Positions 3,291-58,121 of a stretch of DNA of 64,000 nucleotides are shown here, one piece after another. Origin of the DNA: Rufibacter sp. XAAS-G3-1. Lineage in GTDB: Bacteria; Bacteroidota; Bacteroidia; Cytophagales; Hymenobacteraceae. The first letter of the stretch is position 1; every line of letters starts with the position of its first letter. The stretch spans positions 1 through 64,000 of the forward strand of contig NZ_JABFAM010000019.1 in the NCBI RefSeq assembly GCF_013623775.1. The letters are read 5' to 3'. A program made the translations under genes and the position numbers. The notes beneath the pieces were generated by a model, which was not told the origin of the DNA, did no database searches, and worked only from the letters and a program-made list of their open reading frames with translations.

Positions 3291-3580
3291 GTTGTGCGTA
3301 AGTGAAAGAACTTTTTACCAGCTGGCACGGCAGAAAATTTATCAGCAGATGAAGCAGAAGTACAGAAAAGAAATCATCTGACTTGGCAGAAGAAAACCAG
3401 CAGAAGAATTATAAGTTAGCTTAGCAAAAGTCAGGAAAGCCACCCGACTTCTATCAGCAAAAGTTGCAGAAGTGGCAAAAGAGGAATTGACGCAGCATTT
3501 GAACAAGAACGGACGCAAAAAGCTTGCAGAACCGACCGAAACGCGTTTTTGGCCTGTTTTTCAGAAATCAGGCCAAAACT
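3291..3580. repeat. second diverged copy of the gene-less cassette sequence
   Basis: From GTTGTGC at about 3293 the sequence follows 949-1290 with many substitutions and small gaps. Shared blocks include GGCACGGCAGAAAA, the repeated GCAGAAG words, GACGCAGCATTTGA/GACGCTGCGTTTGA and the palindrome GGCCTGTTTT. No gene is recognisable in it. It looks like a duplicated cassette lying on the other side of the IS110 element. Confidence 0.5.
3544..3580. repeat. P-family palindrome
   Basis: GTTTTTGGCCTGTTTTTC is followed by AGAAATCAGGCCAAAACT. The arms pair over about 15 bp with few mismatches. Confidence 0.7.
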
Positions 3581-3615
3581 GAACGAAAGAAAAGAAAACA
3601 TAAAACGCCCCATCT

Positions 3616-3657
3616 CCTGTTTTCGGGCTGTTTTCCTGAAATCAGGTCAAAAACAGA
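3616..3657. repeat. P-family palindrome
   Basis: CTGTTTTCGGGCTGTTTTCC is followed by TGAAATCAGGTCAAAAACAG. It lies only 36 bp from the preceding copy. Confidence 0.65.
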
Positions 3658-3748
3658 AATAATAAAATGCGCGGGGAAAAGTAAAAGAACACCTCCGCAC
3701 AACGTACTTGTGTAAACGGCGGCGTCAACAAACAACCTCAGTTGCCAC

Positions 3749-3967
3749 TTACACGCCATGTACTTTACGCCCATAGGCAGGTAGTATTTGACCTTCAAGG
3801 CACCGTCTCGCGCCATAGACTCCTGCATTTTCTCCTTCACCTGCTCCATACTTTACTCCAGACCCGCTGATGACTTTCCTGCTCATCCTCCCAAGCGGTT
3901 GGCCAGAGACTGGGGCCACCGCTGCAGGCCTTTGAACCGTTCCGGCGTCCCCCCATACGTTCACCAT
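3749..3967 (-). pseudogene. decayed IS110 transposase fragment
   Basis: The minus-strand reading VAPVSGQPLGRMSRKVIS followed by an EGENAGVYGARR-like stretch aligns with VDPISGKTLGQVNKKAIR and the following helix of the IS110 transposase at 2041-3046. The overlapping frame (3849-3568) reads MEQVKEKMQESMARDGALKV, matching MEQVEEKMQEFIAKDGALKG. Homology therefore crosses frames and is broken by indels. Only the middle of the gene is left. It is a different, older insertion than the copy at 2.0-3.3 kb. Confidence 0.7.
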
Positions 3968-4317
3968 GCCGTCCTTCCCCTAACAATCATAAAGGGACAA
4001 TTGGAAATGAAACCGCACTACTCTAATGGAACTGGGCAATTACTAAAACCTAGCAGGGTTTCCGTATGACAGAAGGAGATAATAAAGCACAGGCCGCCTC
4101 TAAAACACACGTACTCTCCTAAACAGTTTTATTGCATGGGGCTATCCTTCCCTTTTATAAACAGCTATCCTCCTCACAATGAACCACTCCTGTTTTTTGG
4201 CTGTTTTACCAAGGACAGGCCGAAAACGGCTATTTATTAACCAGCGCAAAAAAGGCATTTGTATTTTATAATTCAGATATTCTTGCTAATTTTGCGACTT
4301 GCAAAAAAAGAGGCAAC
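3968..4317. other. intergenic region with one palindrome and a possible promoter
   Basis: No coding region is supported here. A P-family palindrome lies at 4189-4230 (TGTTTTTTGGCTGTTTTACC with a matching right half ACAGGCCGAAAACGG), and a TAnnTTTG box lies at 4287-4294. Confidence 0.6.
4258..4294 (+). promoter_or_regulatory. possible Bacteroidota-type promoter for the DUF177-rpmF operon
   Basis: TAATTTTG at 4287-4294 matches the TAnnTTTG -7 consensus of the Bacteroidota housekeeping sigma factor, with a TTTG at 4258-4261 as a possible -33 element. The 25-bp gap is longer than usual. The box ends 23 bp before the first start codon. Confidence 0.4.
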
Positions 4318-4869
4318 GTGAAGGAGATTAAGAAATACGATATCAATCTTGTGAGGCTGGGCAACAAAAGCCACAGCTATGAGTTTGAATTGGATGACCG
4401 CTTCTTTGAGTTGTTTGAACAGGAGTTGATCCTGGGCGGCAACTTGAAGGCTGAGGTAGTGCTGCACAAGTCTGAGCTTCTTTTGCAGTTCGATTTCCAT
4501 ATAAAAGGAACGGTTCGCCTGACCTGTGACCGGAGCTTAGAGGATTTTGAGCACCCGCTGGAAGTAGAACAAACGCTGCTCGTTCGCTACGGCCCAGAAG
4601 ACCTGGAACTGGATGTGAACGTGTTGCAGATAGTACCGGAGACGCAGTATATCAACATTGCCCAGCACTTATATGATTACATAGGCTTGGCCATACCCAT
4701 GAAAAAGCTGCACCCCCGGTTTGTGGAAGAAGACCAGGAACGGGATGACCCAGAGGCCGAAGGCCTGTTGATCTACTCTACTGGTTCAGAGGGAGAAGAT
4801 GATGAGGACGATGAGGACGAGGACGGCCCAATAGACCCCCGCTTCGCCGCCCTTAGAAAGTTAAAATAA
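4318..4869 (+). CDS. DUF177/YceD family protein
   Basis: This 183-residue protein starts at GTG 4318. The central region (LTCDRSLEDFEHPLEVEQ, then a PETQYINIAQHLYDYIGLAIP segment) is typical of the DUF177/YceD family, which sits upstream of rpmF in most bacteria and in some species affects 23S rRNA or fatty acid gene expression. Unlike many YceD proteins it keeps one cysteine (LTCDRS) rather than a pair. The C-terminus is strongly acidic, an Asp/Glu-rich run at about residues 157-172. It is followed by rpmF after 32 bp, and the rpmF-plsX-fabH order supports the family call. The biochemical role is not established. Confidence 0.85.
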   Translation: MKEIKKYDINLVRLGNKSHSYEFELDDRFFELFEQELILGGNLKAEVVLHKSELLLQFDFHIKGTVRLTCDRSLEDFEHPLEVEQTLLVRYGPEDLELDVNVLQIVPETQYINIAQHLYDYIGLAIPMKKLHPRFVEEDQERDDPEAEGLLIYSTGSEGEDDEDDEDEDGPIDPRFAALRKLK

Positions 4870-4901
4870 GTTTATAACCAATTTTGTAATAATTACCTGC
4901 G

Positions 4902-5096
4902 ATGGCACATCCTAAGCGAAAAATCTCCAAAACCAGAAGAGATAAGAGAAGAACGCACGACAAAATCACTCCTAAAGCGATTTCTATCTGCCCTAACACC
5001 GGAGAGGTGCACCAATACCACAGAGCATACGTGGTAGACGGAGATTTATACCACAACGGTAAAGTGGCCATCAAAAATTATACCTCTGTTGCGTAA
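4902..5096 (+). CDS. rpmF: 50S ribosomal protein L32
   Basis: This 64-residue basic protein begins [20 protein letters not shown], the conserved N-terminus of L32 that binds 23S rRNA. It lacks the CxxC zinc ribbon found in many L32 proteins: only one Cys ([13 protein letters not shown]) is present, so it is a zinc-independent form, as is usual in Bacteroidota. It sits between the DUF177 gene and plsX, the widely conserved link between ribosome and phospholipid synthesis genes. Confidence 0.96.
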
Positions 5097-7138: not shown

Positions 7139-7173
7139 GCCGCTCGTTTTTAGGCTTCTTTTCTGAAATAGAT

Positions 7174-7207
7174 CAAAAAATTCGGCTATCTTTGGCCGAA
7201 TTTTTTT
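7174..7207 (+). terminator. intrinsic terminator after fabH
   Basis: AAAAAATTCGGC pairs with GCCGAATTTTTTT around a 7-8-nt loop. The right arm ends in a run of seven T. It separates fabH from efp. The preceding bases 7148-7173 resemble a P-family half-site. Confidence 0.8.
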
Positions 7208-8432: not shown

Positions 8433-9776
8433 ATGTTCAAAAAAATACTGATTGCCAACCGTGGCGAGATTGCCCTGAGGGTGATCCGGACTTGCAAAGA
8501 AATGGGCATCAAAACGGTAGCCGTCTACTCTACCGCCGACAAGGAAAGCCTGCACGTGCGCTTCGCCGATGAAGCCGTTTGCATTGGCCCGCCCTCCAGC
8601 GCCCTGTCTTACCTTAACATTCCCAACCTGATTGCCGCCGCGGAAATCACCAACGCAGATGCCATTCACCCCGGCTACGGGTTCCTTTCTGAAAACGCCG
8701 AGTTTTCCAGAATCTGCGCCGAAAACGGGATCAAGTTCATTGGCGCCACCCCAGAAATGATCAACTCCATGGGCGATAAATCATCGGCGAAGGAGTACAT
8801 GAAAAAAGCGGGCGTGCCTACCATTCCGGGTTCAGAAGGCTTGCTGAGTTCTGCCGAACAGGGCAAGAAATTGGCCGCCAAAATCAAGTATCCGGTCATC
8901 ATCAAAGCCACGGCCGGGGGCGGTGGACGCGGCATGCGCATCATCAAATCAGCCGATGAGTTTGACAAGGCCTGGAACGATGCCCGGCAGGAAGCCAAAG
9001 CCGCTTTCGGGAACGACGGCATGTACCTGGAGAAATTTGTGGAGGAGCCGCGTCACATTGAGATCCAGATTGTGGGCGACCAGTACGGCGCCGTTTGCCA
9101 CTTGTCTGAGCGCGACTGCAGCATCCAGCGCCGTCACCAGAAACTGATTGAGGAAACCCCTTCGCCGTTTATCTCAGACGAGCTGCGCGAGCGCATGGGC
9201 CAGGCCGCCATTGCCGGGGCCAAAGCCATCAACTACGAAGGCGTAGGCACCATTGAGTTCCTGGTAGACAAGCACAAAGATTTCTACTTCATGGAGATGA
9301 ACACCCGTATTCAGGTGGAGCACCCCATCACCGAGGAAGTAGTGAACTACGATCTAATCAAGGAGCAAATCAAGGTAGCCGCCGGTATCCCAATCTCAGG
9401 CAAGAACTATTATCCGCAGATGCACGCCATTGAGTGCCGCATCAACGCCGAAGACCCCAAAGCGAATTTCCGCCCGAGCCCAGGGAAGATCACGGTGTTG
9501 CACATTCCGGGTGGTCATGGGGTACGCGTAGACACACACGTGTATGCGGGCTACACCATTCCGGCCAACTATGACTCCATGATCGCGAAGCTGATTGTGA
9601 GCGCCCAAACCCGCGAAGAAGCCATTGTAAAGATGAAACGCGCCTTGAGCGAGTTCGTGATTGAAGGCGTAAAAACCACCATTCCGTTCCACATGGCCAT
9701 GATGGAGGACAAAAACTTCAACGAAGGCGACTTCACCACCAGTTACCTGGATACCTACGATTTCACTAAGTTTTAA
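8433..9776 (+). CDS. accC: acetyl-CoA carboxylase biotin carboxylase subunit
   Basis: This 447-residue ATP-grasp enzyme carboxylates the biotin on AccB using ATP and bicarbonate. The N-terminal [20 protein letters not shown], the glycine-rich ATP loop [14 protein letters not shown] (about residues 158-171), the metal site [18 protein letters not shown] and the C-terminal lid domain are all present. Length is normal for a stand-alone subunit. It is preceded by accB and closed by a strong hairpin at 9784-9835. Confidence 0.98.
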
Positions 9777-9783
9777 GGAAATT

Positions 9784-9835
9784 GCCCCTAAAACAGAAAA
9801 GCAGCCTTTTAGGGCTGCTTTTCTGTTTTAGGGGC
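9784..9835. terminator. bidirectional terminator with a perfect 23-bp stem
   Basis: GCCCCTAAAACAGAAAAGC continues to a 23-nt arm (9784-9806) that pairs perfectly with 9813-9835 around the loop TTTTAG. It lies 7 bp after accC and also faces the minus-strand DUF3109 gene. The outer arm shares the CCTAAAAC word of the P-family palindromes. Confidence 0.9.
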
Positions 9836-9863
9836 AAAACTGATGTTATGAAGTTTGGGGCTG

Positions 9864-9903
9864 GTGTTTTTGGCGTGTTTTCCAGAAAACTGGTTAGAAA
9901 CGG
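9864..9903. repeat. P-family palindrome
   Basis: GTTTTTGGCGTGTTTTCCAG is followed by AAAACTGGTTAGAAACGG. It lies between the accC terminator and the DUF3109 stop codon. Confidence 0.6.
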
Positions 9904-9922
9904 AACGTGCTCATATTTTGAT

Positions 9923-10574: not shown

Positions 10575-10613
10575 AAACAGGAAAGCAGCCGTTTGGGGGC
10601 TGCTTTCCTGTTT
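10575..10613 (-). terminator. hairpin terminator downstream of the STAS-like gene
   Basis: AAACAGGAAAGCAGCC (10575-10590) pairs perfectly with GGCTGCTTTCCTGTTT (10598-10613). It lies 16 bp after the stop codon of the minus-strand gene at 10629-11027. The stem is very similar to the inner part of the 9784-9835 terminator. Confidence 0.7.
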
Positions 10614-10628
10614 TAAGGCCAAAAACGG

Positions 10629-11027
10629 TTAGGCTTCCATCACCCAGGCCAGGGCCGCTGCTTCGTTGTCAAAATAATGGGTGTCAAACCGTACGGCGAT
10701 GCCTGCTTTCAGGAGGATGTTATCTACCGCCATTTTATTGAAGATGTCTTTTGACACAATCACCGCCATACGCTCCACATTGCCTTGGGCAGAGAATTTG
10801 GGAGCCCACTCCTGTACAGTCCACTCCTGGTCGGAGGGTCGTATGGCTTTGGCGTTGGTGTTATCGCCTATCCAACGGAGCACCTTTTTTTCAGTAACCA
10901 ATTGAAGATAGGTGTTCAGGATTTGCCGGTACTCTTCGCTATTGGCGAAGCCTTTCCATTGGGTGCGTACCAATGCCGCTCCCTCATCATAAGTAATGAG
11001 GATTCTATCATTTTGAAAGTAAACCAT
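10629..11027 (-). CDS. SpoIIAA/STAS-like small protein of unknown function
   Basis: This 132-residue cytoplasmic protein has alternating beta-strands and helices (ILITYDEGAALVRTQWKGF, MAVIVSKDIFNKMAVDNILLKAG, HYFDNEAAALAWVMEA). The C-terminal phrase with FDNEAAALAWV is typical of STAS/SpoIIAA-like proteins that are frequent in Cytophagales. In other bacteria such proteins bind small molecules or partner proteins, but no partner gene is adjacent. The gene is monocistronic. The fold call is from pattern only. Confidence 0.55.
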   Translation of the reverse strand: MVYFQNDRILITYDEGAALVRTQWKGFANSEEYRQILNTYLQLVTEKKVLRWIGDNTNAKAIRPSDQEWTVQEWAPKFSAQGNVERMAVIVSKDIFNKMAVDNILLKAGIAVRFDTHYFDNEAAALAWVMEA

Positions 11028-15113: not shown

Positions 15114-16255
15114 TGAGCTTTTATACCAAGTACCTGAGAAATACGCTCTTCTTGTATTTCCTCTTTCTGCTCACCTCTTGCGAGGAACCCTTTACCCCTG
15201 AAGTACTGGAAAGGCCGAACAACTTCTTAGTGGTAAGTGGTTTTATCAACAGCAACGGGCCCACAGCCATCAAACTCTCCCGCACCCAGAATCTGTCTGA
15301 AGAGGGTGGGCCAGCTATGGAAACAAGAGCAACCGTGACGGTGGCGGAAGAAAACGGCCCAACGTACCTTCTAAGGGAAACCGCAGCAGGTACGTACACT
15401 TCAGGCAGACTCCCTATCCAGAACAGTAAACGGTACCGTCTGGTCATAAAGGCGGGCGGTAAGGATTATGCCTCTGACTATGTAGAAGTAAAGCAAACCC
15501 CTGTCATTGACAAAATAAGTTGGCAGGCAGAGAGTGACGGCTTACAGTTCATGGTAACCACCCATGATGACCAGAACAATACGCGCTTTTACCGTTGGGA
15601 ATACGAAGAGACCTGGGAGTACCGGGCGTATTATTATTCTGAGTATGAGTATGTCAATGGAGAAATGCAGTATCGCAGGCCTGAAAATGACATTTACCTG
15701 TGCTGGCAAAACAACAGTTCCAAAAACATCCTCATCAACAATACCGTCAAGCTCAGCCAGGATGTGGTCAGCAATTACCCCTTACTCAAACTTCCCGCAA
15801 ATTCTGACAAACTCGCCAACAAATACAGCCTTCTGGTGAAGCAATATGCCCAGTCTAAAGAATCCTATGAATACTGGGACGCGCTCAAGAAAAATACCGA
15901 AAATATTGGCACCTTGTTCGATCCCCTCCCTACCCAGCTGACCGGGAACATCACCTGTCTTACAGATCCTGCAGAGCCTGTCATAGGGTTTATAAACATC
16001 TCCTCAGTAGAAGAAAAAAGGATCTTTGTGAACAAGTCTGAGTTACCTACGGGATGGCGTCCCCCAAGTATGCACTGCACCATTGACACCGTGGCAGTAA
16101 AAGATTTGAAGGAGCATTTCTCATCTGGTTTTAATATTCCGGTTAGCATGATATACTCAGATATGGGAGCTTTCTTAGGCTACTCCGGGGCTTCTAGCAC
16201 CTGCGCAGATTGTAGAGTTTACGGCACCAAAACCAAACCAGATTTCTGGCAATAA
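15113..16255 (+). CDS. DUF4249 family lipoprotein
   Basis: This 380-residue protein begins with a lipoprotein signal (LYFLFLLTSCEEPF, lipobox LLTSC with Cys near residue 23). The mature region starts FTPEVLERPNNFLVVSGFIN, typical of DUF4249, a beta-rich family that is regularly encoded after STN-type TonB receptors in Bacteroidota. It has four conserved-looking cysteines at the C-terminus (STCADCRVYG region and MHCTID). It is probably a surface or periplasmic partner of the receptor. The start codon overlaps the receptor stop by 1 bp, and the next gene follows after 13 bp, so all three form one operon. Confidence 0.85.
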   Translation: MSFYTKYLRNTLFLYFLFLLTSCEEPFTPEVLERPNNFLVVSGFINSNGPTAIKLSRTQNLSEEGGPAMETRATVTVAEENGPTYLLRETAAGTYTSGRLPIQNSKRYRLVIKAGGKDYASDYVEVKQTPVIDKISWQAESDGLQFMVTTHDDQNNTRFYRWEYEETWEYRAYYYSEYEYVNGEMQYRRPENDIYLCWQNNSSKNILINNTVKLSQDVVSNYPLLKLPANSDKLANKYSLLVKQYAQSKESYEYWDALKKNTENIGTLFDPLPTQLTGNITCLTDPAEPVIGFINISSVEEKRIFVNKSELPTGWRPPSMHCTIDTVAVKDLKEHFSSGFNIPVSMIYSDMGAFLGYSGASSTCADCRVYGTKTKPDFWQ

Positions 16256-16268
16256 TTCTGAAAACAGC

Positions 16269-18698
16269 ATGAAAACACCAATGAAGAATCTAACCGTTTT
16301 TGGCAGAGCTGGTTTCAGGGTCATGTTAGGCTTAGGCTTGTTTTACGGAATAACAGCCAATGTCTACGGCCAAGCCGCTTCCTCTTCAACTCTGCCCGCT
16401 CGTCTGCAAGAATTCCAGAGCAAAGCCGTCCAGGAGAAGGTCTTCCTGCACCTAGACCGTACCGCCTACGCCAGCGGCGACATCATGTGGTTTAAAGTGT
16501 ACAACGTAGACGGAACGCTGCACCAACCGCTGGACATGAGCAAAGTTGCCTACGTAGAGGTATTGGATGCGGGCCGCCAACCTGTTCTGCAGGGGAAAAT
16601 CGCGTTAAAGGAAGGTGCCGGCAATGGGTCTTTTGTGTTACCGGTGACCCTGGAGGCAGGCAATTACATGGTACGGGCCTATACCAACTGGATGAAAAAC
16701 TTCAGCCCCGACTTTTATTTTGAACAGCCGGTGGCCATCATCAACACCTTTCAGCCGTTAGCCTTAAAACCCGTCCCTGACACGGCCACATACGCGATAC
16801 AGTTTTTCCCCGAGGGGGGAAACCTTGTCACTGGCTTACCCGGCAAAGTAGCTTTCAAGGCCACAAACCGCAAGACCGGCAAAGGCACCAGTTGCCAGGG
16901 CGAAATACGGGACAATGCCGGTCATGTAGTGACCACTTTCCAGCCTACAAAGCACGGAATAGGCCATTTTATCCTCCCCCCTGCCGCTGGAGAATACACG
17001 GCCGTGGCTACGTTTCCGGGGGGAAAAGTGGTTCGGCAGAAATTGCCCCAGCTTCAGGAAACAGGCTATCATCTAAACCTGACTGAAAGCAGCCCCGGTG
17101 AGCTTCAGATTACTACTTACGCTACAAACCAGCAACCGGAACAACTTTACCTTCTGGGCCACACGCGGCAAAAGGTGGTTGTAGCGGCTACCACTATCAT
17201 GGCCAATGGGAAAGCCACCTTTTCAGTGGTCAAAGATTCTCTGGCGGCGGGCATCACCCATTTTACCGTTTTCAACAGCCAGCAAAAACCGATAGCCGAA
17301 CGGCTCTTCTTCAAACGCCCTACAAAGCAACTGGAAATAGAAACCGTCTTACAGAACAATCCGTTTGGCGCGCGCGAGAAGGTAGTGCTGGACTTACTTA
17401 CCCAACGGCAGCCGGGGGTGGCAACTGCGGCCAATCTATCGTTGGCGGTCTTCAAAGCAGACAGCCTCCAAGCCACTGACATCGCCGACATCACCGCGTA
17501 TCTGTATTTATCCTCTGATCTGAAAGGCACGGTAGAGAATGCCGCTTCTTACTTCTCTGAAACTGGCCCGCAGGCAGAGGAAGCCTTTGATAACCTCATG
17601 TTAACCCATGGCTGGCGCCGCTTTACCTGGGAGGACGTGCTAAGCCAGAAAACACCCACCTTTCAATTTCTTCCAGAATATGAGGGCCACCTGATCCAGG
17701 GGAAAGTTACCCATAATGCCACCGGCACCCCAGCCAGCGATGTTAGAGCTTACCTGGCCGCACCGGGCAAAAACACCCGCTTTTACAGCAACGTGAGCAA
17801 GGCAGATGGCTCTGTGCTGTTTGCCGTGAAAGATTTCTTTGGGCCGAAGGAAATGGTGGTGCAGACAAACTTCCTAAAAGACAGCACCTACCATTTTGAA
17901 GTTTTCAGCCCGTTTTCCAGTAACTACTCAGAAAAGCGCCCCCCCGCCTTTGATGCCGAAGAAAGCCTGCGCCCGGCCATCCACTTACGCCACCTGGATG
18001 TACAGGCACAGAATATCTATTTTGAGAAATTCCTGAACCGCTACCAAGCCCCGGCCATAGACAGCCTCCCCTTTTACGGCAAACCCAACCAGCAATTCTT
18101 CTTGGACGATTATACCCGCTTTAAAGTGATGGAAGAGGTCATGCGCGAGTATGTACCAGGCGTACTGGTAAGAAAACGCCGCGACGGTTTCCATTTCAGG
18201 GTAATGGATGCACAGAACAGGCTTGTTTTCGAGGAAGATCCCCTCGTCCTGCTAGATGGCGTTCCGGTCTTTGACATAAATAAAATAATGGCCTTTGACC
18301 CGCTGAAGGTGCAAAAGCTGGATGTCATGACCACCAACTATTACAACGGTTCGCTCTCCTCCTACGGAGTGGTAAGTTACACCACCTACAAAGGCGATCT
18401 GGCCGGCTTCCCGATAGACCCCAGAGCCTTGTTGCAGGAATACGAAGGGCTCCAACTACAGCGCGAATTCTACGCCCCTGCCTATGATACCCAGGAACAG
18501 AAACTAAGCCGCCTGCCCGACTGGCGGAACCTGCTGTACTGGGCTCCTGACCTGAATACCGGCCCAGACGGCAAAGCCAGCACCCACTTCTACACTTCTG
18601 ACCAGGCAGGCACGTACACCATTGTGGTGCAGGGCCTAACCCAGGAAGGCTTACCCGGCAGTAAAGTAGTTACCTTTCAGGTGAAGAAACCCTTGTAA
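16269..18698 (+). CDS. secreted MG2-domain protein with a TonB plug-like segment
   Basis: This 809-residue exported protein has a signal peptide (about residues 1-35, ending VYGQA). The N-terminal part contains an MG2 (macroglobulin) domain: VFLHLDRTAYASGDIMWFKVY and AGNYMVRAYTNWMKNF. The central part is a series of beta-sandwich repeats. Near residues 655-705 the segment PLVLLDGVPVFDINKIMAFD followed by VQKLDVMTTNYYNGSLSSYG resembles a TonB plug. It is the third gene of the receptor-DUF4249-MG2 operon. Such trios are common in Cytophagales but no function has been shown; a role in surface uptake or binding is inferred. A start at 16281 is also possible. Confidence 0.8.
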   Translation: MKTPMKNLTVFGRAGFRVMLGLGLFYGITANVYGQAASSSTLPARLQEFQSKAVQEKVFLHLDRTAYASGDIMWFKVYNVDGTLHQPLDMSKVAYVEVLDAGRQPVLQGKIALKEGAGNGSFVLPVTLEAGNYMVRAYTNWMKNFSPDFYFEQPVAIINTFQPLALKPVPDTATYAIQFFPEGGNLVTGLPGKVAFKATNRKTGKGTSCQGEIRDNAGHVVTTFQPTKHGIGHFILPPAAGEYTAVATFPGGKVVRQKLPQLQETGYHLNLTESSPGELQITTYATNQQPEQLYLLGHTRQKVVVAATTIMANGKATFSVVKDSLAAGITHFTVFNSQQKPIAERLFFKRPTKQLEIETVLQNNPFGAREKVVLDLLTQRQPGVATAANLSLAVFKADSLQATDIADITAYLYLSSDLKGTVENAASYFSETGPQAEEAFDNLMLTHGWRRFTWEDVLSQKTPTFQFLPEYEGHLIQGKVTHNATGTPASDVRAYLAAPGKNTRFYSNVSKADGSVLFAVKDFFGPKEMVVQTNFLKDSTYHFEVFSPFSSNYSEKRPPAFDAEESLRPAIHLRHLDVQAQNIYFEKFLNRYQAPAIDSLPFYGKPNQQFFLDDYTRFKVMEEVMREYVPGVLVRKRRDGFHFRVMDAQNRLVFEEDPLVLLDGVPVFDINKIMAFDPLKVQKLDVMTTNYYNGSLSSYGVVSYTTYKGDLAGFPIDPRALLQEYEGLQLQREFYAPAYDTQEQKLSRLPDWRNLLYWAPDLNTGPDGKASTHFYTSDQAGTYTIVVQGLTQEGLPGSKVVTFQVKKPL

Positions 18699-18773
18699 CC
18701 CTCCTTCAAAAACCTGCCAAGTATAAACCAGCGCTACCATCCATTTTCAGCCTCTTTTTCAGAAAACTCGGGT

Positions 18774-18819
18774 AAACCAGAAAGCTACTTCATTGTGTGA
18801 TGGAGTAGCTTTCTGGTTT
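18774..18819 (+). terminator. terminator of the TonB/DUF4249/MG2 operon
   Basis: AAACCAGAAAGCTACT (18774-18789) pairs perfectly with AGTAGCTTTCTGGTTT (18804-18819) around a 14-nt loop. A degenerate P-family half-site precedes it (18745-18770). Confidence 0.75.
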
Positions 18820-21246: not shown

Positions 21247-21290
21247 ACCTGTTTTGAGGCTGTTTTTCATAAAACAATCCTAAAACAGGT
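21247..21290. repeat. P-family palindrome after pcrA
   Basis: ACCTGTTTTGAGGCTGTTTT is followed by CATAAAACAATCCTAAAACAGGT. The outer arms ACCTGTTTT/AAAACAGGT pair exactly. It could serve as a terminator but has no T tract. Confidence 0.7.
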
Positions 21291-23409: not shown

Positions 23410-23437
23410 ATTTCTCCCGCGAGAAGAACTTTCTTTC

Positions 23438-27700: not shown

Positions 27701-27707
27701 GATTTCC

Positions 27708-41353: not shown

Positions 41354-41393
41354 TCGTTTAGAGGCTGTTTTCTGTAAAACAAAGGGAAAACGG
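41354..41393. repeat. P-family palindrome
   Basis: TCGTTTAGAGGCTGTTTTCTG is matched by TAAAACAAAGGGAAAACGG, with a degenerate right half. Confidence 0.6.
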
Positions 41394-41488
41394 AAACAAG
41401 CTCTTAGCTTGGTAAGCGTTAGCCGCCCCGTTTGCTGATGATCCCTCTTCCAGGTTGACTTTCAATCTATGCATTAGAAAACACGAAG

Positions 41489-41529
41489 CCGTTTTAAGGC
41501 TGATTTTCTTAAATCAGCCTTAAAACCCC
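41489..41529. repeat. P-family palindrome, perfect 16-bp stem
   Basis: GTTTTAAGGCTGATTT (41491-41506) pairs exactly with AAATCAGCCTTAAAAC (41511-41526) around TCTT. No gene end is near, so this copy cannot be a terminator. Confidence 0.8.
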
Positions 41530-41617
41530 GATAAATTGGTGCGCCTTAGAAGGGATGGCGGAGCGCCAGAACCCACCCTGCCCAGGCTCCTCTTGCAGGG
41601 AAACTTTTGCTGATGTC

Positions 41618-41745: not shown

Positions 41746-41763
41746 ATGGAAGAACAGGGATGG

Positions 41764-41802
41764 TGTTTTGGGCCTGTTTTGCGGAAAACGAACCTAAAAC
41801 GC
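41764..41802. repeat. P-family palindrome
   Basis: TGTTTTGGGCCTGTTTTGCG is matched by GAAAACGAACCTAAAACGC. Confidence 0.65.
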
Positions 41803-41929
41803 ACCAACCCGCTTGACGGGAGAAAGGCGGCTCAAGCTGTCCTTCCCCTGCAAGATGAGCTCCCAAGCCTTTACAGGGTAATACAGGCATTACAACCAAT
41901 AACTGCTAATTATGCGGCCAAAATTAGCT

Positions 41930-45342: not shown

Positions 45343-45409
45343 GCTCTATGCACAACAAGGCGCCAGTTTACTCTAAACCAGTGAGGTCTTGAAAACCTCA
45401 CTGTTTCTT

Positions 45410-45449
45410 CGTTTTGGGTCTGTTTTCAGAAAACAGCCCTAGAACCCGT
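45410..45449. repeat. P-family palindrome
   Basis: CGTTTTGGGTCTGTTTTC is matched by AGAAAACAGCCCTAGAACCCG. It is preceded by the hairpin GTGAGGTCTTGAAAACCTCAC at 45382-45402. Confidence 0.75.
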
Positions 45450-45582
45450 TTAGTGAAGAAGCAATAGCAAGCTTGGTTAAACAACATCTGCTCATTAGTC
45501 GCCACTCCTACAGCCCTTTTACCTCAGTTCGCTTTGAAAATATATTTTTCGGAAACCTCTTGCAGATATCACCAGTACCAGT

Positions 45583-46598: not shown

Positions 46599-49134
46599 AT
46601 TACAAAGTACTTTAGAAACGCCTGTTTCTGAGGCTAAAACGCAAAAAACAGCCCAGAAACCGCTCCTCCTGGTGGGCTTGGCTTGCATTGTGGTCTCTTT
46701 TGGTATTTTCCTGTTGCAGGAAGCAAACCTGGTCAAGAAGGTAGACGGCACGGAAAGCCTTTTCATGTTAAACTTCCTAATGGCGGGCGGGTATTTGATA
46801 GCCCTCCGGGTTCAAAGGCTTTTCCGCTTTAACTCTCCGCTGCAACAATTGGACTACCTGATGCTTTTCCTAGTGGCGGGCCTTATCAGTTGTTTTTCCC
46901 TGAACCGTGAAATCCCCCTCTTCCTTCCTTCGGTAGATTGGTTCAGTGGCTGGCTTTTGGCGGTGTCTTTGGGCATGGTAGGGTACGCCTTCAGGTTCCT
47001 GCTGCCCCGGGCCCTCTATTTGGTAATGGTGTTCTTGCTGGGCACCGGCACCGTGCTGTTCAGTTATTTCGCGCTTTATTTGGCTCCTTATTACCACGTG
47101 GGGTTGCTGGGTACCATTGTGCTGGGACTGGGGCTGCATATGTTTGTGCCCTTCTGGTCGGCCATAAGCCTGACGGTGGCCGCACTGCGGATGGCCAGGG
47201 AGGATATTGCCCTTAAAAAGACCTTCCTGATGGGGATTCTGGTGCCCATCTTGTTCGCGCTGGTGTACCTAAGCCTTTGGCAGGCAGGCCATGACAAGAT
47301 CAACCGCATCCTAAATTCCTACCAGGTGCAAGACCAACAGGAGTTGCCCCGGTGGGTAGCCCTGAGTCAGCAGATTCCGCACACGCCTATCTTTGAGCGG
47401 CTGGTGCAGACAGATTTGCTTTACCAGACGGCGGCCGAATCTTCTGAAATGTTCAATTTCCCTTCCCGCTCTTTTGAGGAATTGCAACGCCATGATCCGT
47501 TGGTAGTACTGGCCACCCGTTTCTTCGGAAAACCGCAGCTTACCACTCAAGAGCGCATCAAAATCATGGAAAGCCGGTTTGACGCCCGTCACCTGGCGCA
47601 GGAGCGGCTCTGGTCAGGCGATCATCTTTCTACCAGCAACGTGATCACGCAGGCCCAGCTCTTTCCGCGGCACCGTTTCAGTTACACAGAGAAAATCCTG
47701 ACGGTCTATAACAACCAACCAAGTTCCTGGGCCCAGGAAGAGGCTATTTACACGTTTCATTTACCCCAGGGAAGTGTGGTCACCTCCCTCTCTTTGTGGA
47801 TTAACGGCAAAGAAGAAAAAGGCCGCCTCACCACCCAAAGCAAAGCCGACAGTGCCTATACCACCATTGTGGGCGTAGAAGTCAGAGACCCCTCGGTGGT
47901 GCATTGGCAAGAGGGAAATACCGTGAGCGTGCGGGTATTCCCCTGCACGCCGCAGGAAAGGCGCCAGTTTAAGATAGGCGTCACGTCGCCCCTCCGCTTA
48001 GACGCCGGACAGCTGGTGTATGAGAACATCTACTTTGACGGCCCTTCGGCAAAAAACGCCCCAGAAACCACCATCATTAGGGTAGAGGAGTCAACGTCTG
48101 CATTGCCCCTGCCCCGGGAGTTCAACCAAACCTCGCCGGGCCGGTATGAACGCTACGGAAACTATGAACCCGACTGGAGTTTTAAGATAGCCGCCGCCCC
48201 GCTTAGTACTAGCCGTTTCACCTTTGCCGGACAATCTTACCAGATGCAGCCCTACGCGCCACCGCTTACCTCCTTTAGCCCCACCCGCATTTACCTGGAC
48301 TTGAACAAAGCCTGGTCTGAGGAGGAGTTTATGCAAGTCTGGAACGCTGCTAAAAATGCCAAGGTGTACGCCTACGCCGCTGGTACCATGACCAAATTGA
48401 CGGACGAGAACCATGCCGCCGTCTTCCGGCAGTTACGGGAACTCAACTTCTCCTTGTTTCCCCTGCATTTGGTCAAAGAACCCGAATTAGCCCTAATCAT
48501 CAGCAAAAGCACCGGAAACTCCCCTCACCTGAGCGACCTGCAAGACAGCCGTTTTGCCCTTAATTTTGCAAAAACAGCCCCAAAACGGGAGCCAATCCGC
48601 TTCTTTCATCTCGGCACCACGCCATCGCCTTACGTGAAGACCATAAAGGAATTACGTTTGCTGCAGTATGACCAGGGCTCCGCCGAAGAACTGGTGCGTT
48701 TATTGGCCGAAAAACAATTTGTGGCGGCAAACCAAGACCAGAACTCGGTGATTCTGGGAGAGGCCGGGGTACAGATCACACGTTCCCATTCGGCTGAGAC
48801 GACCTACGGTGCACCAGACCACCTTATGCGGCTATTCGCTTACAACCACCTGTTGCAGCAGATTGGGCCAGCCTATTTCCAGCAAAACTACCTGGAGCAA
48901 CACCTGATAGCGGAAGCCGCCCAAGCCAACGTGGTGAGCCCGCTTTCCAGTCTAGTGGTGCTGGAAACCAAAGCCGATTATGAACGCTTCGGGATTGAGG
49001 AAAGCAAGAACAGCCTGGGCAATGCCAGCGTGAAATCATCGGGGGCCGTGCCAGAGCCGCATGAGTGGGCCCTTATTTTCCTGGTCATTCTGGTAGTTTC
49101 CTTTTCGGTGTTAAAACCCCGTATGTTGTCATGA
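46588..49134 (+). CDS. XrtN-system VIT domain protein with PEP-type C-terminal sorting signal
   Basis: This 848-residue membrane protein starts at ATG 46588; TTG 46582 in frame would add two residues. The N-terminal third has about seven membrane segments (PLLLVGLACIVVSFGIFLLQ onward). The middle contains a VIT-type domain (about residues 350-480, IYTFHLPQGSVVTSLSLWIN). The C-terminus VPEPHEWALIFLVILVVSFS followed by LKPRMLS is a PEP motif, a hydrophobic helix and basic residues, the pattern of exosortase substrates. xrtN follows with an ATGA overlap. Two P-family palindromes lie inside the coding region (46618-46663, residues 11-26; 48550-48589, residues 655-668). Function beyond sorting is unknown. 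Confidence 0.88.
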   Translation: MNFELQSTLETPVSEAKTQKTAQKPLLLVGLACIVVSFGIFLLQEANLVKKVDGTESLFMLNFLMAGGYLIALRVQRLFRFNSPLQQLDYLMLFLVAGLISCFSLNREIPLFLPSVDWFSGWLLAVSLGMVGYAFRFLLPRALYLVMVFLLGTGTVLFSYFALYLAPYYHVGLLGTIVLGLGLHMFVPFWSAISLTVAALRMAREDIALKKTFLMGILVPILFALVYLSLWQAGHDKINRILNSYQVQDQQELPRWVALSQQIPHTPIFERLVQTDLLYQTAAESSEMFNFPSRSFEELQRHDPLVVLATRFFGKPQLTTQERIKIMESRFDARHLAQERLWSGDHLSTSNVITQAQLFPRHRFSYTEKILTVYNNQPSSWAQEEAIYTFHLPQGSVVTSLSLWINGKEEKGRLTTQSKADSAYTTIVGVEVRDPSVVHWQEGNTVSVRVFPCTPQERRQFKIGVTSPLRLDAGQLVYENIYFDGPSAKNAPETTIIRVEESTSALPLPREFNQTSPGRYERYGNYEPDWSFKIAAAPLSTSRFTFAGQSYQMQPYAPPLTSFSPTRIYLDLNKAWSEEEFMQVWNAAKNAKVYAYAAGTMTKLTDENHAAVFRQLRELNFSLFPLHLVKEPELALIISKSTGNSPHLSDLQDSRFALNFAKTAPKREPIRFFHLGTTPSPYVKTIKELRLLQYDQGSAEELVRLLAEKQFVAANQDQNSVILGEAGVQITRSHSAETTYGAPDHLMRLFAYNHLLQQIGPAYFQQNYLEQHLIAEAAQANVVSPLSSLVVLETKADYERFGIEESKNSLGNASVKSSGAVPEPHEWALIFLVILVVSFSVLKPRMLS
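46591..46614. promoter_or_regulatory. second operator-like palindrome at the VIT gene start
   Basis: AACTTTGAATTACAAAGT followed by ACTTTA matches the site at 45583-45612. It covers the end of the regulator gene and codons 2-9 of the VIT gene. Confidence 0.5.
46618..46663. repeat. P-family palindrome inside the VIT coding sequence
   Basis: GTTTCTGAGGCT and ACAGCCCAGAAAC are complementary halves around AAAACGCAAAAA. The segment is translated as PVSEAKTQKTAQKPLL, next to the first membrane helix. Confidence 0.55.
48550..48589. repeat. P-family palindrome inside the VIT coding sequence
   Basis: CGTTTTGCCCTTAATTTTGC is followed by AAAAACAGCCCCAAAACGGG. The translated segment is RFALNFAKTAPKRE. 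Confidence 0.65.
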
Positions 49135-50516: not shown

Positions 50517-50560
50517 CCCCGTTTTAGGGCTGTTTTCTGGATAACAGCCCTAAAACGGGG
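50517..50560. terminator. P-family palindrome at the end of xrtN, probable bidirectional terminator
   Basis: CCCCGTTTTAGGGCTGTT (50517-50534) pairs perfectly with AACAGCCCTAAAACGGGG (50543-50560). It lies between convergent xrtN and the exporter gene and is the best-preserved P copy with a TTCTGGAT loop. Confidence 0.8.
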
Positions 50561-51813: not shown

Positions 51814-52787
51814 AACTCAATAAAAAAGGAGGCAAAGGTACGATGCGCGAGGCTCTGAATTTCAGAAAAGCCCACCGCCGCCGGTATCCTCCGCGAAACC
51901 AGAATTTCTCTACGCGATTCCAGTAGACCAGGACGCCTGATTTTGCCCTGTTTTCAGAAAAACAAGGCAAAATCAGGCAGTTACCACCCCGCCTTTCAGG
52001 CAATCCTCCTTAGTCTAATCTTGCAGGGAAAAAACAGTAACCATTCTAATGAAAGAAAAGGCGCTTTCTACCCTTCCCGCTCTTTCGGATTTATTAATCC
52101 CGAACAGCAACGTTAATACAAGTTTTCCTACAAGATGAGCTCCTTAGTGAGGAGGGGAGTTTTTGTTTGCCAACGCAATGTCGCCTGCTCAAAAGACCTC
52201 GAAGTGTCTGGAAGACCTGCGAGTGTCTGTGCCGGTGGCTTTGAAGTGCGTGAAATCTGCTGGTGTAAACATCCCCCTTCGCCCCCTTCAAAGGGAGAGC
52301 ATCTGCTATTGTGACCAAAGGCTTTTCTGATGTTAACTAGGCCGCGGAAGTAAATCCGCGCCATAGTTGTTTTTGCGCTAGCAGCGGAGATAGTATGGAG
52401 ATAACCCAACACGTAGGAACGAATCAGAGACTCGCGCCAGCAAAATGGGAGGCTCTTTCTTGTAGAGCAGGAATCAGGGATGTTTTTCTTATATGTGGAA
52501 GGAAATACCCGCTGCTATAGAAGGGAACGCAAGGTATTGCGTCTCTACAAAAGACCTCACAGGTTTCCAAAACCGGTGAGGCCTCCCACGCATATCCGTT
52601 CCCAACCTTTCGCTTGAGCGCCTTGAGATCTGCGGTGTTGGGGGCAGCCCGGCCTCTGAGGCTTTTAGCCAAAGGAAGCGGGGGCTCGCACGGTGCGCGC
52701 TTATCGGGAAAGATGAACCTGAAACAACGTGAAATACCGTCACTCCAAGGCACTCGTCAACTGCCTGCACATTCAACATCAAAACAA
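51814..52787. other. repeat-rich intergenic region, no gene
   Basis: No coding region is supported. A P-family palindrome lies at 51935-51978. The segment 52165-52235 repeats 45238-45295 (CGCCTGCTC, AAAGACCTCG, GACCTGCGAG). CCCCCTTCGCCCCCTTCAAA near 52270 recurs next to the hsdR remnant (59580-59600). A hairpin-like GACCTCACAGG/CCGGTGAGGCC lies at 52552-52582. Confidence 0.6.
51935..51978. repeat. P-family palindrome
   Basis: GCCTGATTTTGCCCTGTTTT is matched by AAAACAAGGCAAAATCAGGC around CAGA, with one mismatch in the 20-bp arms. Confidence 0.8.
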
Positions 52788-54502: not shown

Positions 54503-54954
54503 AAGTTATTGGCCGCGCCAACCTAAAATATAATTGGATAGATCTGTCCCTTCAAAGCTTCCCTTGCTTCATTAGTTGGGCGAAGCCCCATTTACGCAAG
54601 ATGAATGCGTATTAATACTAGGCATATTCTACCTCAGAAGCAAATCTTCCACAATATCTTTTCAAATGAGGCGTTCTAATCCTCTATTTCCTTTCTAAAC
54701 CGATACTCATTCTTGCTTTAAACCCATTCCAACTTCAGCGCAAACGTAGCATATCCCCCTGTGCTTTTACTTGCCCCAGTCTGTTTTAGGGTTGTTTTAA
54801 GGCTGTTTTCCAGAAAAGGCGCCAAATCCACCAAGCCACCCTATTATCCATAAGGGAAAAGGGAAGTGAGGTTTGCGCTGTTGTTCGGGATTTATCAATC
54901 TGAAAGAGCAGGTTGATGGTAGTTTTGGGAAAGAAGCCGATAAAAGATTGCTGG

Positions 54955-55284: not shown

Positions 55285-55338
55285 GCTGCCTCCGTTTGAG
55301 GGCTGTTTTTGCCAAAACAGCCCTCAAACGGAGGCAGC
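55285..55338. repeat. P-family palindrome with a perfect 25-bp stem
   Basis: 55285-55309 and 55314-55338 are exact complements around TGCC. The core GTTTGAGGGCTGTTTT is P-type, extended outward by GCTGCCTCC. It lies 164 bp from the nearest gene end. Confidence 0.9.
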
Positions 55339-56528: not shown

Positions 56529-56879
56529 ATGAAGAACTATTACCCTTCACAAGCCATAAACAACCCTGAGTTCTTAGAGGAGGATTTTTCAGCAAAACTC
56601 ATGACGATACTACAGTCTGAGGTATATGAGCGCGGAGAAGCCATTGAGGATGTTTTATCAGTGGCTACTACCTATAAAGAGGTACTTGGCCAAAGCCCTG
56701 AGTTGAAGGAATCAAAAAACGCAGATCAAATCTTTTGGCACCTGGACTCCCTTATACAGGAGGCGCTGAACATGATGCATAATCCTAAAAATGACTTATT
56801 TCTCTATTTAAGAGCTTTATTCGCTTTCAAAAACAGCATACAAAGTAATTTCGAATTCCAGAATATACCAGTTGCCTGA
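56529..56879 (+). CDS. small acidic protein of unknown function
   Basis: This 116-residue soluble, mainly helical and acidic protein (SAKLMTILQSEVYERGEAIE; ADQIFWHLDSLIQEALNMMH) has no signal peptide or membrane helix. I do not recognise it. The gene is more AT-rich than its neighbours, with an AT-rich promoter region, and is followed 8 bp after the stop by a 23-bp inverted repeat; this boundary suggests an acquired, independently transcribed gene. Confidence 0.6.
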   Translation: MKNYYPSQAINNPEFLEEDFSAKLMTILQSEVYERGEAIEDVLSVATTYKEVLGQSPELKESKNADQIFWHLDSLIQEALNMMHNPKNDLFLYLRALFAFKNSIQSNFEFQNIPVA

Positions 56880-56887
56880 CTGCCAAG

Positions 56888-56947
56888 CCTGATATGACAG
56901 GATTGGATGGCACCCTGGGTAAGCCCATCCAATCATGTCATATCAGG
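56888..56947. repeat. 23-bp inverted repeat after the small gene
   Basis: The arms 56888-56910 and 56925-56947 (CCTGATATGACA ... GATTGGATGG) pair with one mismatch around 14 bases. It could be a terminator (no T tract) or an end of a mobile element. The rest of the 56880-57294 gap has no supported gene; the long open frame at 56907-57290 runs through the hairpin and looks non-coding. Confidence 0.7.
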
Positions 56948-57294
56948 ATGCCAATGTTTACTGAAGGCTTTTGTCTCAGGCAGACATGCTTGGCCTTACA
57001 GATGGTCATATTGGCAAGGAGGCCAGATGGCCGGGCATAGGAGAAGTCAATGGCCATTGCCCAGAAGAAGGAGTCAAGTACGCGCAAGCTCAAAACCGTT
57101 ACTTTCAACATTTTACCTGTTGATAGTGTCCCGTCTCTACTGTGACAGGCCCAACCCCTTCAGGGGTATGCCTTCAGTGGCGGAATCACCCATGTCTCCA
57201 ACGGCACAGGTTCTGCCAACCTTTTCTGCCGCCTGCGTATCTATTATGCAGACCAAACTGCAATCATTCTTCTCACTAAACACACGCTAGCCAA

Positions 57295-57696
57295 ATGGGA
57301 ATTACATTAGAACAGGCCGAAAAGGCGATCAGGGCAGCCGTCGCCGAAGCGCAGGAACTGGACCTGAAGATGAACATAGCCGTGGTGGACGCCGGGGCTA
57401 ACCTGACGGCCTTCGCCCGCATGGACGGTGCCTGGCTGGGCTCGGTTGACATTGCCATCCGCAAGGCCCGCACGGCTCGGTTCTTTGACATGCCCACCGG
57501 CGATTTGGGGCAAGCCTCACAGCCGGGCGGCTCCCTCTACAACATAGAGCACTCCAACGGCGGACTGATCACCTTCCCGGGCGGCATCCCCCTCAAAGAC
57601 GGCAACGGTGAGGTCATCGGTGCCATCGGAGTATCGGGCAGCACGGTGGAGAATGACCATAGGGTGGCCGAGGCAGGCTTGAAGGCCATCAGCTAG
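57295..57696 (+). CDS. GlcG/HbpS-like heme-binding family protein (DUF336)
   Basis: This 133-residue protein starts [20 protein letters not shown]. The family is recognised by [20 protein letters not shown], the [10 protein letters not shown] helix, the [20 protein letters not shown] segment and the ending EAGLKAIS. Relatives bind heme or act with glycolate/diol pathways, but many are uncharacterised. No pathway genes are next to it. The gene is GC-rich compared with the small gene to its left, and its upstream flank looks rearranged. Confidence 0.9.
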
Positions 57697-57796
57697 CGCG
57701 CGGGAGTTCCTGCAACGTAGGCTTCCCCTCCCCTGTCGCGCATCTTGTAGGGAAAAGCAGTTCTGAGTAGCAGGACAAATTAGACTATCAATTTTG

Positions 57797-57885
57797 TTTT
57801 CCTGAAAGGATCTTGTGGCCAAACCGGAAAAGCTGTAAATGAACGCCCCTGCCGTTCGCCCATAAGATCCTTTCAGGATGACAGG
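57797..57885. repeat. E-family palindromic element, copy E4
   Basis: TCCTGAAAGGATCTTGTGG faces CCATAAGATCCTTTCAGGA. The interior is diverged from E1-E3. Confidence 0.7.
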
Positions 57886-57918
57886 AGAGGAGGATTTCTG
57901 TCCAGTTACTTACAACGA

Positions 57919-58121
57919 ACCTGTTTAGAGTTTTTCATTAACCGGCATTTAAAGCAATTAATTCCTCTTGCGTGCGCATCTGCTTGTGTCCGTTTTAAGG
58001 CTATTTTTATGAAAACAGGCATAAAACAAGAGGTTTATTGGCACACTGCCGCAAGCATCTGCTTGTCCTTCCGTTTTGAGGCTATTTTTTTGAAAACAGG
58101 CATAAAACTCTAAACGGCATC
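57919..58121. mobile_element. 203-bp MITE-like element M2
   Basis: CTGTTTAGAGTTTT at 57921-57934 and its near complement AAAACTCTAAACGG (58103-58116) are the ends. The element is an inverted copy of M1 (28931-29132) and also holds two P-family palindromes (about 57988-58030 and 58070-58105). Confidence 0.7.

What the first reader, a model, noticed from the sequence alone, without database searches (positions are those of the whole stretch)
3544..58105. A dispersed 40-bp palindrome in about 30 places, mostly intergenic (P family)
Copies with half-site about CGTTTTNRGGCYTGTTTT followed by its complement occur at 3544, 3616, 4189, 9864, 21247, 23436, 27708, 29394, 31872, 41354, 41489, 41764, 45410, 50517, 51935, 54781, 55285 and elsewhere, about one per 2 kb. 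Some sit at convergent gene ends and could terminate transcription, but others are upstream of genes, beside a separate terminator, within MITEs or in gene deserts, so termination does not explain all of them. Sequence conservation exceeds what a stem alone requires. This resembles REP/BIME elements, which are usually spread by a Y1 (RAYT) transposase, but no such gene is in the window.
Basis: partly seen in the sequence, partly recalled or inferred. Interest (0 to 1): 0.75.

Follow-up and report, generated by a model that had tools for sequence, protein, structure and literature searches.

The report
Genus-wide 40-bp dyad at gene ends
Rufibacter bacteria carry an estimated one to three and a half thousand copies of a 40-letter mirror-symmetric DNA word, mostly just after genes, in a different 'dialect' in several species and kept in place as if some protein reads it as DNA.

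Summary
All 17 listed sites are real; 37 copies score 14 bits or more in the window, where shuffles give none. The genus is Rufibacter. Density is about 0.65/kb here (roughly 3,400 copies by extrapolation); 16 of 16 Rufibacter genomes have the family, against one single hit in 188 genomes of five other family genera.

RAYT mobilisation is not supported: the genome's one RAYT has its own, different inverted repeat. But P does flank Y1 genes somewhat more often than isolated small genes (11 of 20 vs 28 of 98).

Bulk P is not selected as an RNA hairpin: halves vary independently, the spacer is rigidly 4 bp, and transcribed short-arm copies show G-U 586 vs A-C 600, whereas ordinary terminators show 101 vs 43. 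About 12% of copies have long perfect arms and look like terminators.

Sites persist at orthologous gene ends (pcrA 16 of 16) while sequence follows species dialects. Best reading: a double-stranded DNA site for an unidentified two-fold-symmetric factor, partly co-opted as terminators. An uptake-like drive is the boldest alternative. No trans-acting factor was found.

The parts
1241..1284 (.). P dyad copy
   Evidence: matrix score 37
3541..3584 (.).
   Evidence: score 42
3615..3658 (.).
   Evidence: score 47
4188..4231 (.).
   Evidence: score 34
7142..7185 (.). P dyad copy, degenerate
   Evidence: score 20
9755..9798 (.). P dyad copy, degenerate, at end of biotin carboxylase-family gene
   Evidence: score 20; Pfam
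9862..9905 (.).
   Evidence: score 41
10587..10630 (.). P dyad copy
   Evidence: score 24
16237..16280 (.). P dyad copy, degenerate, over a gene end
   Evidence: score 18
17897..17940 (.). weak P-like site inside a predicted CDS
   Evidence: score 16
18739..18782 (.). P dyad copy upstream of pcrA
   Evidence: score 31
21247..21290 (.). P dyad copy 43 bp after pcrA stop; a copy stands at this gene end in 16 of 16 species
   Evidence: score 42
23429..23472 (.). P dyad copy after EPSP synthase-family gene; a copy follows this gene in 14 of 16 species
   Evidence: score 35
23528..23571 (.). P dyad copy, poorly paired
   Evidence: score 33; fold
23711..23754 (.). P dyad copy
   Evidence: score 35
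24899..24942 (.). P dyad copy between convergent genes
   Evidence: score 28
27705..27748 (.). P dyad copy 4 bp after the stop of gene 26417-27700 (transporter-like by eye, not scanned), upstream of a separate canonical terminator; found in 10 of 10 species in which the gene was found
   Evidence: score 44
28940..28983 (.). P dyad copy, part of a larger duplicated stretch
   Evidence: score 29
29021..29064 (.). P dyad copy, part of the same duplicated stretch
   Evidence: score 45
29392..29435 (.).
   Evidence: score 39
31869..31912 (.).
   Evidence: score 40
33261..33304 (.). P dyad copy, degenerate
   Evidence: score 21
33315..33358 (.). P dyad copy
   Evidence: score 38
37061..37104 (.). 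P dyad copy at a gene edge next to a divergent region
   Evidence: score 35
37161..37204 (.). P-like site, degenerate, divergent region
   Evidence: score 17
41352..41395 (.).
   Evidence: score 35
41487..41530 (.).
   Evidence: score 43
41761..41804 (.). P dyad copy inside a larger dispersed repeat
   Evidence: score 43
45407..45450 (.).
   Evidence: score 29
46621..46664 (.). weak P-like site in a predicted CDS
   Evidence: score 15
48547..48590 (.). P dyad copy inside a predicted CDS
   Evidence: score 39
50517..50560 (.). P dyad copy with long near-perfect arms filling the gap between two convergent genes (terminator-like class)
   Evidence: score 48
51935..51978 (.). P dyad copy
   Evidence: score 32
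54790..54833 (.).
   Evidence: score 34
55290..55333 (.). P dyad copy with long perfect arms
   Evidence: score 39; fold
57988..58031 (.). P dyad copy
   Evidence: score 46
58069..58112 (.). P dyad copy, similar to the previous (38 of 44)
   Evidence: score 44

Best explanation
P is a double-stranded DNA site, not mainly an RNA hairpin: two inverted half-sites, about CGTTTTNRGSCTGTTTT, with a rigid 4-bp spacer, read by an unidentified factor with two-fold symmetry (a dimeric, Rufibacter-specific nucleoid or topology protein is my guess). It stands at many gene 3' ends, its positions are inherited, its contact positions are under purifying selection, and its consensus drifts as a species dialect, presumably with the factor. 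About 12% of copies have grown long perfect arms and serve additionally as intrinsic terminators. Shown: copy number, genus limit, symmetry, rigid spacing, independent halves, lack of an RNA signature in the bulk, positional retention, dialects, terminator-like subset. Inferred: that a protein binds, that it acts on topology or gene boundaries, and that an initial burst at the root of the genus placed the copies.
For: Halves agree no more than shuffled halves at k=5-10 from the centre in 273 G000-genome copies, and hardly more inside the core in G005 (175 copies). Facing half-sites sit at spacer 4 in 202 (G000), 152 (G005), 74 (G012), 66 (G007) and 62 (G006) cases, with at most 7 at any other facing spacer. 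In codirectional copies with 0-2 extra arm pairs G-U is 586 and A-C 600, while ordinary terminators in the same 8 samples give 101 vs 43. Between G002 and G011 the GTTT, TTT, AAA and AAAC columns are 82-98% identical against 60-63% in flanks, 56 pairs; 48 of 52 and 54 of 62 testable copies are retained. Gene-end positions are shared across species. P lies upstream (62), downstream (115) or across (97) conventional terminators. Dialects and held-out fit.
Against: No binding protein was identified and nothing here shows binding. Covariation does exist at k=11-13 (G000) and k=18-23, so pairing matters at some positions or in some copies. Lone half-sites equal shuffled counts, but in G000 they exceed the reversed-matrix control (26 vs 9 at 14 bits), so some lone halves may be real. 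An orientation-latent model beats the symmetric one by more than in null sets (119 vs 72-84). Retention pairs were selected by the same matrix in both species, and 44 of 96 and 42 of 104 copies had flanks that could not be aligned. G004 and G000 do not fit their own dialect clearly (3 of 12 and 7 of 12). The preference for the first third of codirectional gaps (132/77/38) could reflect mere avoidance of promoters. P flanks Y1 genes more often than isolated small genes.
Confidence: 0.48

Rival explanations
1. P copies are intrinsic terminators or 3'-UTR RNA hairpins that happen to share a sequence.
For: Enriched after genes and between convergent genes; 116 of 950 copies have at least 5 of 6 extra arm pairs, mostly codirectional or convergent; codirectional ones show a T-run downstream on the sense side in 26 of 72 vs 7 on the antisense side, and G-U 47 vs A-C 29. 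Window copies 50517 and 55290 fold at -34 and -52 kcal/mol.
Against: Copies with 0-2 arm pairs lack the G-U excess and the T-run asymmetry (27 vs 30 of 313); many lie downstream of a separate terminator or in divergent regions; independent halves and fixed 4-bp spacer.
Confidence: 0.15
2. P is a DNA-uptake-like self-recognition word kept by biased uptake and recombination (molecular drive), like DUS/USS but as a 38-bp dyad.
For: Thousands of copies by extrapolation, genus limit, species dialects, fixed orthologous positions that change in place, identical cores with locus-specific arms; DUS also has dialects and inverted pairs tied to terminators (passages of PMC3630211 and PMC2397512). ComEC-family gene in 16 of 16 Rufibacter genomes.
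Against: A single DUS suffices for uptake (passage), but lone P halves do not exceed shuffles (in G000 they do exceed a reversed-matrix control). The ComEC family occurs in 37 of 38 genomes searched, so it does not discriminate. Competence of Rufibacter was not tested; no uptake receptor was sought.
Confidence: 0.15
3. P is a REP/BIME or MITE family spread by a RAYT or another transposase.
For: Size, copy number, extragenic place; 1 clean occupied/empty site between G002 and G011; some near-identical copies and some inside larger repeats; a phage-contig copy between two genes; P on both sides of 11 of 20 Y1 loci vs 28 of 98 isolated genes of similar length.
Against: The RAYT of the genome has other terminal repeats; P stands at varying distances from Y1 genes, mostly outside their own repeats; no target duplication beyond chance level; no tag; identical cores carry different flanks and arms; G007 has P but no Y1 match.
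Confidence: 0.18

Closest known systems
REP/BIME elements with RAYT (GTAG- and CGTC-tagged REPs)
   Same: Short palindromes, high copy, mostly 3' of genes and between unidirectional or convergent genes; REPs are reported targets of gyrase (PMC3733652 abstract and passages, PMC2817692 passages).
   Different: No tag seen, no cognate RAYT found, halves vary independently, one dialect per species in several species.
Untagged REP-like palindromes (mentioned for M. tuberculosis, D. radiodurans, Bordetellae, Brucellae, Cyanobacteria in PMC3733652, passage)
   Different: I did not compare sequences; positional conservation and dialects were not assessed for those here.
Neisserial DUS / Pasteurellacean USS
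   Same: High copy (for example 3,770 in N. sicca), dialects conserved within species, inverted pairs that act as terminators, highly conserved elements (PMC3630211 and PMC2397512, passages).
   Different: DUS works as a single 10-12-mer; P is a 38-bp dyad with a fixed spacer.
Intrinsic (rho-independent) terminators
   Same: A subset of P copies has long perfect stems and downstream T-runs.
   Different: Bulk copies have neither, and often sit beside a separate terminator.

Membership tests
REP/BIME with RAYT | GTAG or CGTC tag at one end / intrinsic orientation | tested here: not met
   Orientation-latent EM on 282 copies separates a better from a worse half of the same site; the gain (119) exceeds null sets (72-84), but the two halves keep the same consensus and no tag appears.
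REP/BIME with RAYT | RAYT gene flanked by the same palindrome | tested here: not met
   L001 RAYT has its own inverted repeat of at least 30 bp. Over 20 fetched Y1 loci (of 45 matches) P is near both sides in 11, more than isolated genes of similar length (28 of 98), but at varying distances.
REP/BIME with RAYT | High-copy extragenic palindrome | tested here: met
   264 copies at 14 bits or more in 400 kb; 27 of 261 in predicted CDS in G000, up to 32 of 104 in G011.
MITE | Target-site duplication | tested here: not met
   958 copies: over 128 length/boundary combinations of 3-10 bp the largest full-length excess is 24 vs 18 (3 bp) and 9 vs 4 (4 bp); a 2-bp excess (120 vs 68) lies at boundary 18, at the edge of the dyad.
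MITE | Copies share identity up to fixed ends | tested here: inconclusive
   10 of 175 G005 copies with an identical 32-bp core have different flanks, but a few G000 copies sit in larger repeats.
Intrinsic terminator | RNA stem selected (G-U tolerated) plus T-run | tested here: not met
   Not met for the bulk; met for the long-arm subset.
DUS/USS | Single copies of the unit enriched | tested here: inconclusive
   Lone half-sites do not clearly exceed shuffled counts in 5 samples, but in G000 exceed the reversed-matrix control, 26 vs 9 at 14 bits; the whole dyad as unit remains possible.
DUS/USS | Species dialects at conserved loci | tested here: met
   Clear for G005, G007, G012 and partly G006; weak for G000 and G004.
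DUS/USS | Sequence-biased DNA uptake | not testable with these tools
   Needs transformation assays; ComEC-family gene present.

The most novel reading that the evidence does not exclude
A genus-wide dyad word under concerted evolution in place: thousands of sites at inherited positions change dialect together without copying their flanks, because a coevolving reader (a dimeric chromosome protein, or an uptake/recombination receptor giving molecular drive) imposes its specificity. It would be the first such system in Bacteroidota known to me (recall, not a search result).
Probability: 0.35. Interest if true: 0.9.

Novelty: new variant of a known kind. Interest (0 to 1): 0.72.

Why it matters
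Palindromic repeats in bacteria are usually read as RAYT products or terminators. Here a family stands at many gene ends throughout one genus, lacks the RNA signature in bulk, and shows species dialects at fixed positions. That makes a concrete question testable: who reads it, and how do thousands of scattered sites change together? The answer would name either a new type of chromosome-organising protein or a new kind of self-DNA word.

Tried and rejected
RAYT mobilisation: set aside because the genome's RAYT has other ends and counts do not track; my first statement that P near Y1 genes is at background density (0.71/kb, upper end of the 0.25-0.7/kb) did not hold up as an argument, since a control on similar genes showed P on both sides more often near Y1 genes. 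For that I raised this rival from 0.15 to 0.18 and lowered the best reading from 0.5 to 0.48. Rfam: no match at gathering threshold in the window. Flanking inverted repeats around P in general: a small excess (10 vs 3.3 at score 14 over 282 copies), a few loci only. Intrinsic orientation: none clear. Target-site duplications: none. Full-size element with P halves as ends: 21 half-site pairs were listed; one balanced pair (16.3/16.2 bits) encloses a FeoB gene, the strongest balanced one (17.4/17.9 bits, 574 bp apart, G011) encloses no called gene, the genes in the others were not identified. Analogous palindrome family in other genera: palindromes of 9 other-genus genomes were only looked at by eye and mostly resemble ordinary terminators. 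Origin-to-terminus distribution: not answered, the listing is cut off. rRNA and tRNA ends: 19 tRNAs with 4 copies downstream and 4 upstream within 200 bp, and one 5S site in G007, too few to tell. ComEC as discriminator: 37 of 38 genomes, uninformative. Viral contigs: 1 stretch with an exact match, one scan. Literature: Rufibacter plus palindrom gave 2 papers (listing and abstract starts seen, incidental), Rufibacter plus repeat plus intergenic 0, Hymenobacter plus palindromic repeat 7 (listing only); the RepRanger paper (abstract, outline and a term search) has no mention of Rufibacter in its held main text. Only this open-licence library was searched.
Full report
1. The sites are real. The 17 coordinates all hold a copy. 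By half-site scoring 30 places in the window reach 23 of 32, none in four shuffles. A symmetric 44-column matrix, refined on 400 kb of contig C25 of the same genome, finds 264 copies at 14 bits or more there (0 in two shuffles) and 37 in the window. That is about 0.65/kb; over 5.30 Mb this extrapolates to roughly 3,400 copies. The same extrapolation from 20-kb to 400-kb samples of other species (0.25-0.7/kb) gives about 1,300 to 3,900. Pattern counts over the whole own genome at up to 2 mismatches are 426 forward and 394 reverse, with 0 for the reversed-pattern control.

2. Taxon. An exact pattern scan of the named genome collection returned 27 stretches, all Rufibacter (R. ruber, roseus, immobilis, latericius, sediminis). 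In the family, 16 of 16 Rufibacter genomes match (6 to 1,015 forward hits) and 1 of 188 genomes of the five other genera has one hit. With the G000 matrix at 14 bits one 20-kb stretch around pcrA holds 0.25-0.7 copies per kb in each of 16 Rufibacter genomes; 12 genomes of other genera (20 or 40 kb each) have 2 hits in all, both in one genus, which by eye do not look like P. The low strict-pattern counts in G012 and G009 therefore reflect dialect or decay, not scarcity.

3. Anatomy. Consensus of G000: CCGTTTTnRGSCTGTTTT, four free bases, then the complement. Best conserved are GTTT, TTT(T), AAA(A) and AAAC; the T and A tracts start at columns 5, 16, 24 and 35, that is 11, 8 and 11 apart, close to helical repeats (that this bends DNA is inference). 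An EM with hidden orientation on 282 copies separates a better from a worse half; its gain (119) exceeds that of null sets (72-84), but both halves keep one consensus. Facing half-sites pair almost only at a 4-bp spacer. Lone half-sites at 14 bits number 26, 6, 2, 5 and 1 (G000, G005, G012, G007, G006) against 28, 9, 3, 4 and 1 in shuffles; against a reversed-matrix control (9, 3, 1, 3, 4) G000 has an excess.

4. Not mainly RNA. In 273 copies the two halves agree no more than shuffled halves at k=5-10 from the centre, although those positions are variable; agreement above shuffle appears at k=11-13 and k=18-21, and in G005 (175 copies) at k=18-23 but hardly inside the core. In codirectional copies with 0-2 extra arm pairs, read in the direction of transcription, G-U is 586 and A-C 600. 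The positive control, 239 conventional terminators not overlapping P in the same eight samples, gives 101 vs 43, so the test has power. Against this, 116 of 950 copies have at least five of six extra arm pairs (8 of 958 copies at sample edges were left out); they concentrate in codirectional (72) and convergent (37) gaps; the 72 have a downstream T-run on the sense side in 26 and on the antisense side in 7, and G-U 47 vs A-C 29. These look like terminators built on P.

5. Position. Over eight samples (958 copies) the gaps holding a P number 147 convergent, 419 codirectional and 96 divergent, against 189, 733 and 197 gaps of 60 bp or more (the first numbers may include shorter gaps, so they are not strict fractions). 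Copies in predicted CDS range from 2 of 77 (G012) to 32 of 104 (G011). In codirectional gaps of 200-600 bp copies fall 132/77/38 in first, middle and last third. Relative to a conventional terminator P is upstream in 62, downstream in 115 and overlapping in 97 cases; of 1,003 gene ends with 80 bp of room, 237 have both, 113 only a terminator, 361 only P, 292 neither, looking at most 300 bp out. Gene calls are mine and approximate.

6. Inheritance. I took 11 genes of the window (11626-28873) and looked for P from -25 to +250 bp of the stop in 16 species. Copies follow: pcrA 16 of 16; gene 22105 (EPSP synthase family) 14 of 16; gene 26417 (transporter-like by eye) 10 of 10, at +2 to +7 bp except one at -6; gene 23970 (DUF4349) 13 of 15 and its convergent neighbour 24956 (RlmL-like) 12 of 15, which share many copies; gene 12561 7 of 9; gene 16323 7 of 9; gene 15113 5 of 9; gene 27854 7 of 14; gene 11626 0 of 9; gene 21427 (7 bp before the next gene) 0 of 16. 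Families are; the name pcrA is recalled. Between G002 and G011, 48 of 52 and 54 of 62 copies with alignable flanks are kept; 44 of 96 and 42 of 104 could not be tested; of the 12 not kept (one of them weak), one is a clean presence/absence of about 50 bp. In 56 aligned pairs the GTTT, TTT, AAA and AAAC columns are 82-98% identical, flanks 60-63%. Pairs were chosen by the same matrix on both sides, which favours those columns.

7. Dialects. G012: TTCCGTTTTCGGGCTCATTTC; G007: CCGTTTTTGGCCTGTTTTC; G006: GTTTTgGGCCTGTTTT; G005: CGTTTAGGGGCTGTTTTT; G004 weak. On a 20-kb region outside the training sample copies fit their own dialect best, of six, in 7 of 7 (G007), 9 of 10 (G012), 6 of 9 (G006), 7 of 12 (G000) and 3 of 12 (G004) (G005's region lies inside its training sample and was not counted). 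At shared gene ends one search prints 18 rows, which are 15 distinct copies because three stand between convergent genes and appear twice; leaving out the 4 of G005, 9 of 11 fit their own species best and 2, both of G000, fit G006. Sites thus seem to change in place. Ten G005 copies with an identical 32-bp core have unrelated flanks, several with self-complementary, locus-specific arms, which argues against copying of a unit longer than the core.

8. Mobility. One Y1/RAYT gene in the own genome is bounded by another inverted repeat. 15 of 16 genus genomes have Y1 matches, G007 none. Over 20 fetched Y1 loci (of 45 matches) P stands on both sides, 250-750 bp from the centre, in 11, against 58 of 387 genes of 400-720 bp and 28 of 98 of these with wide gaps. 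So P is commoner beside Y1 genes than beside comparable genes, weakly so against the fairer control. No target duplication.

9. Conclusion. P behaves as a dyad DNA site kept at gene ends by selection or drive and read with species-specific preference, with a minority co-opted as terminators. Which factor reads it is unknown. Closest in place and size are REP/BIME; closest in population behaviour are DUS/USS dialects (passages seen). I rank a two-fold DNA-binding protein first, with a mobile repeat, uptake-like drive and terminators as rivals.

Noticed in passing
downstream of pcrA, window 21204-21370 and the same place in other species (L090-L104): Around the P copy of many species lie outer arms of degenerate roughly 7-bp tandem words (GTATCACG-, AAGACATAAGAC-, TTAGTTATTAG-like) that look complementary across P; the word differs between species at the same locus (one G000 locus scored).
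   Followed up: partly
L001:1190-1250 and 1860-1920: The only Y1/RAYT gene found in the own genome is bounded by its own long inverted repeat with a GCCAATCTCCAGATTGGC palindrome, a separate REP-like family.
   Followed up: partly
L105-L123: P stands on both sides of Y1 genes more often than beside comparable genes (11 of 20, L001 included, vs 28 of 98).
   Followed up: partly
window 41761-41804 and C25 positions near 114900, 388719, 399677: P copies embedded in a larger dispersed repeat (GGGATGGTGTTTTGGGCCTG...CGCACCAACCCGCTT).
   Followed up: partly
window 28940-29064 and C25 102606-102730: A stretch with two P copies is duplicated nearly identically elsewhere in the genome.
   Followed up: no
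3' end of the RlmL-like gene (window 24956-26110, minus) in G002, G003, G004, G011, G014: A (GTGA)n tract of up to about 80 bp directly after the stop codon in five species, absent in the window's genome.
   Followed up: no
L224:1343-1380: A perfect P copy between two genes of a 39-kb viral contig (IMGVR_UViG_2839759663_000002).
   Followed up: partly
orthologues of window gene 12561-15113, end (G002, G003, G004, G009, G010, G011, G014): A P-like site spans the junction of two overlapping genes in 7 of 9 species, so it would be coding.
   Followed up: no
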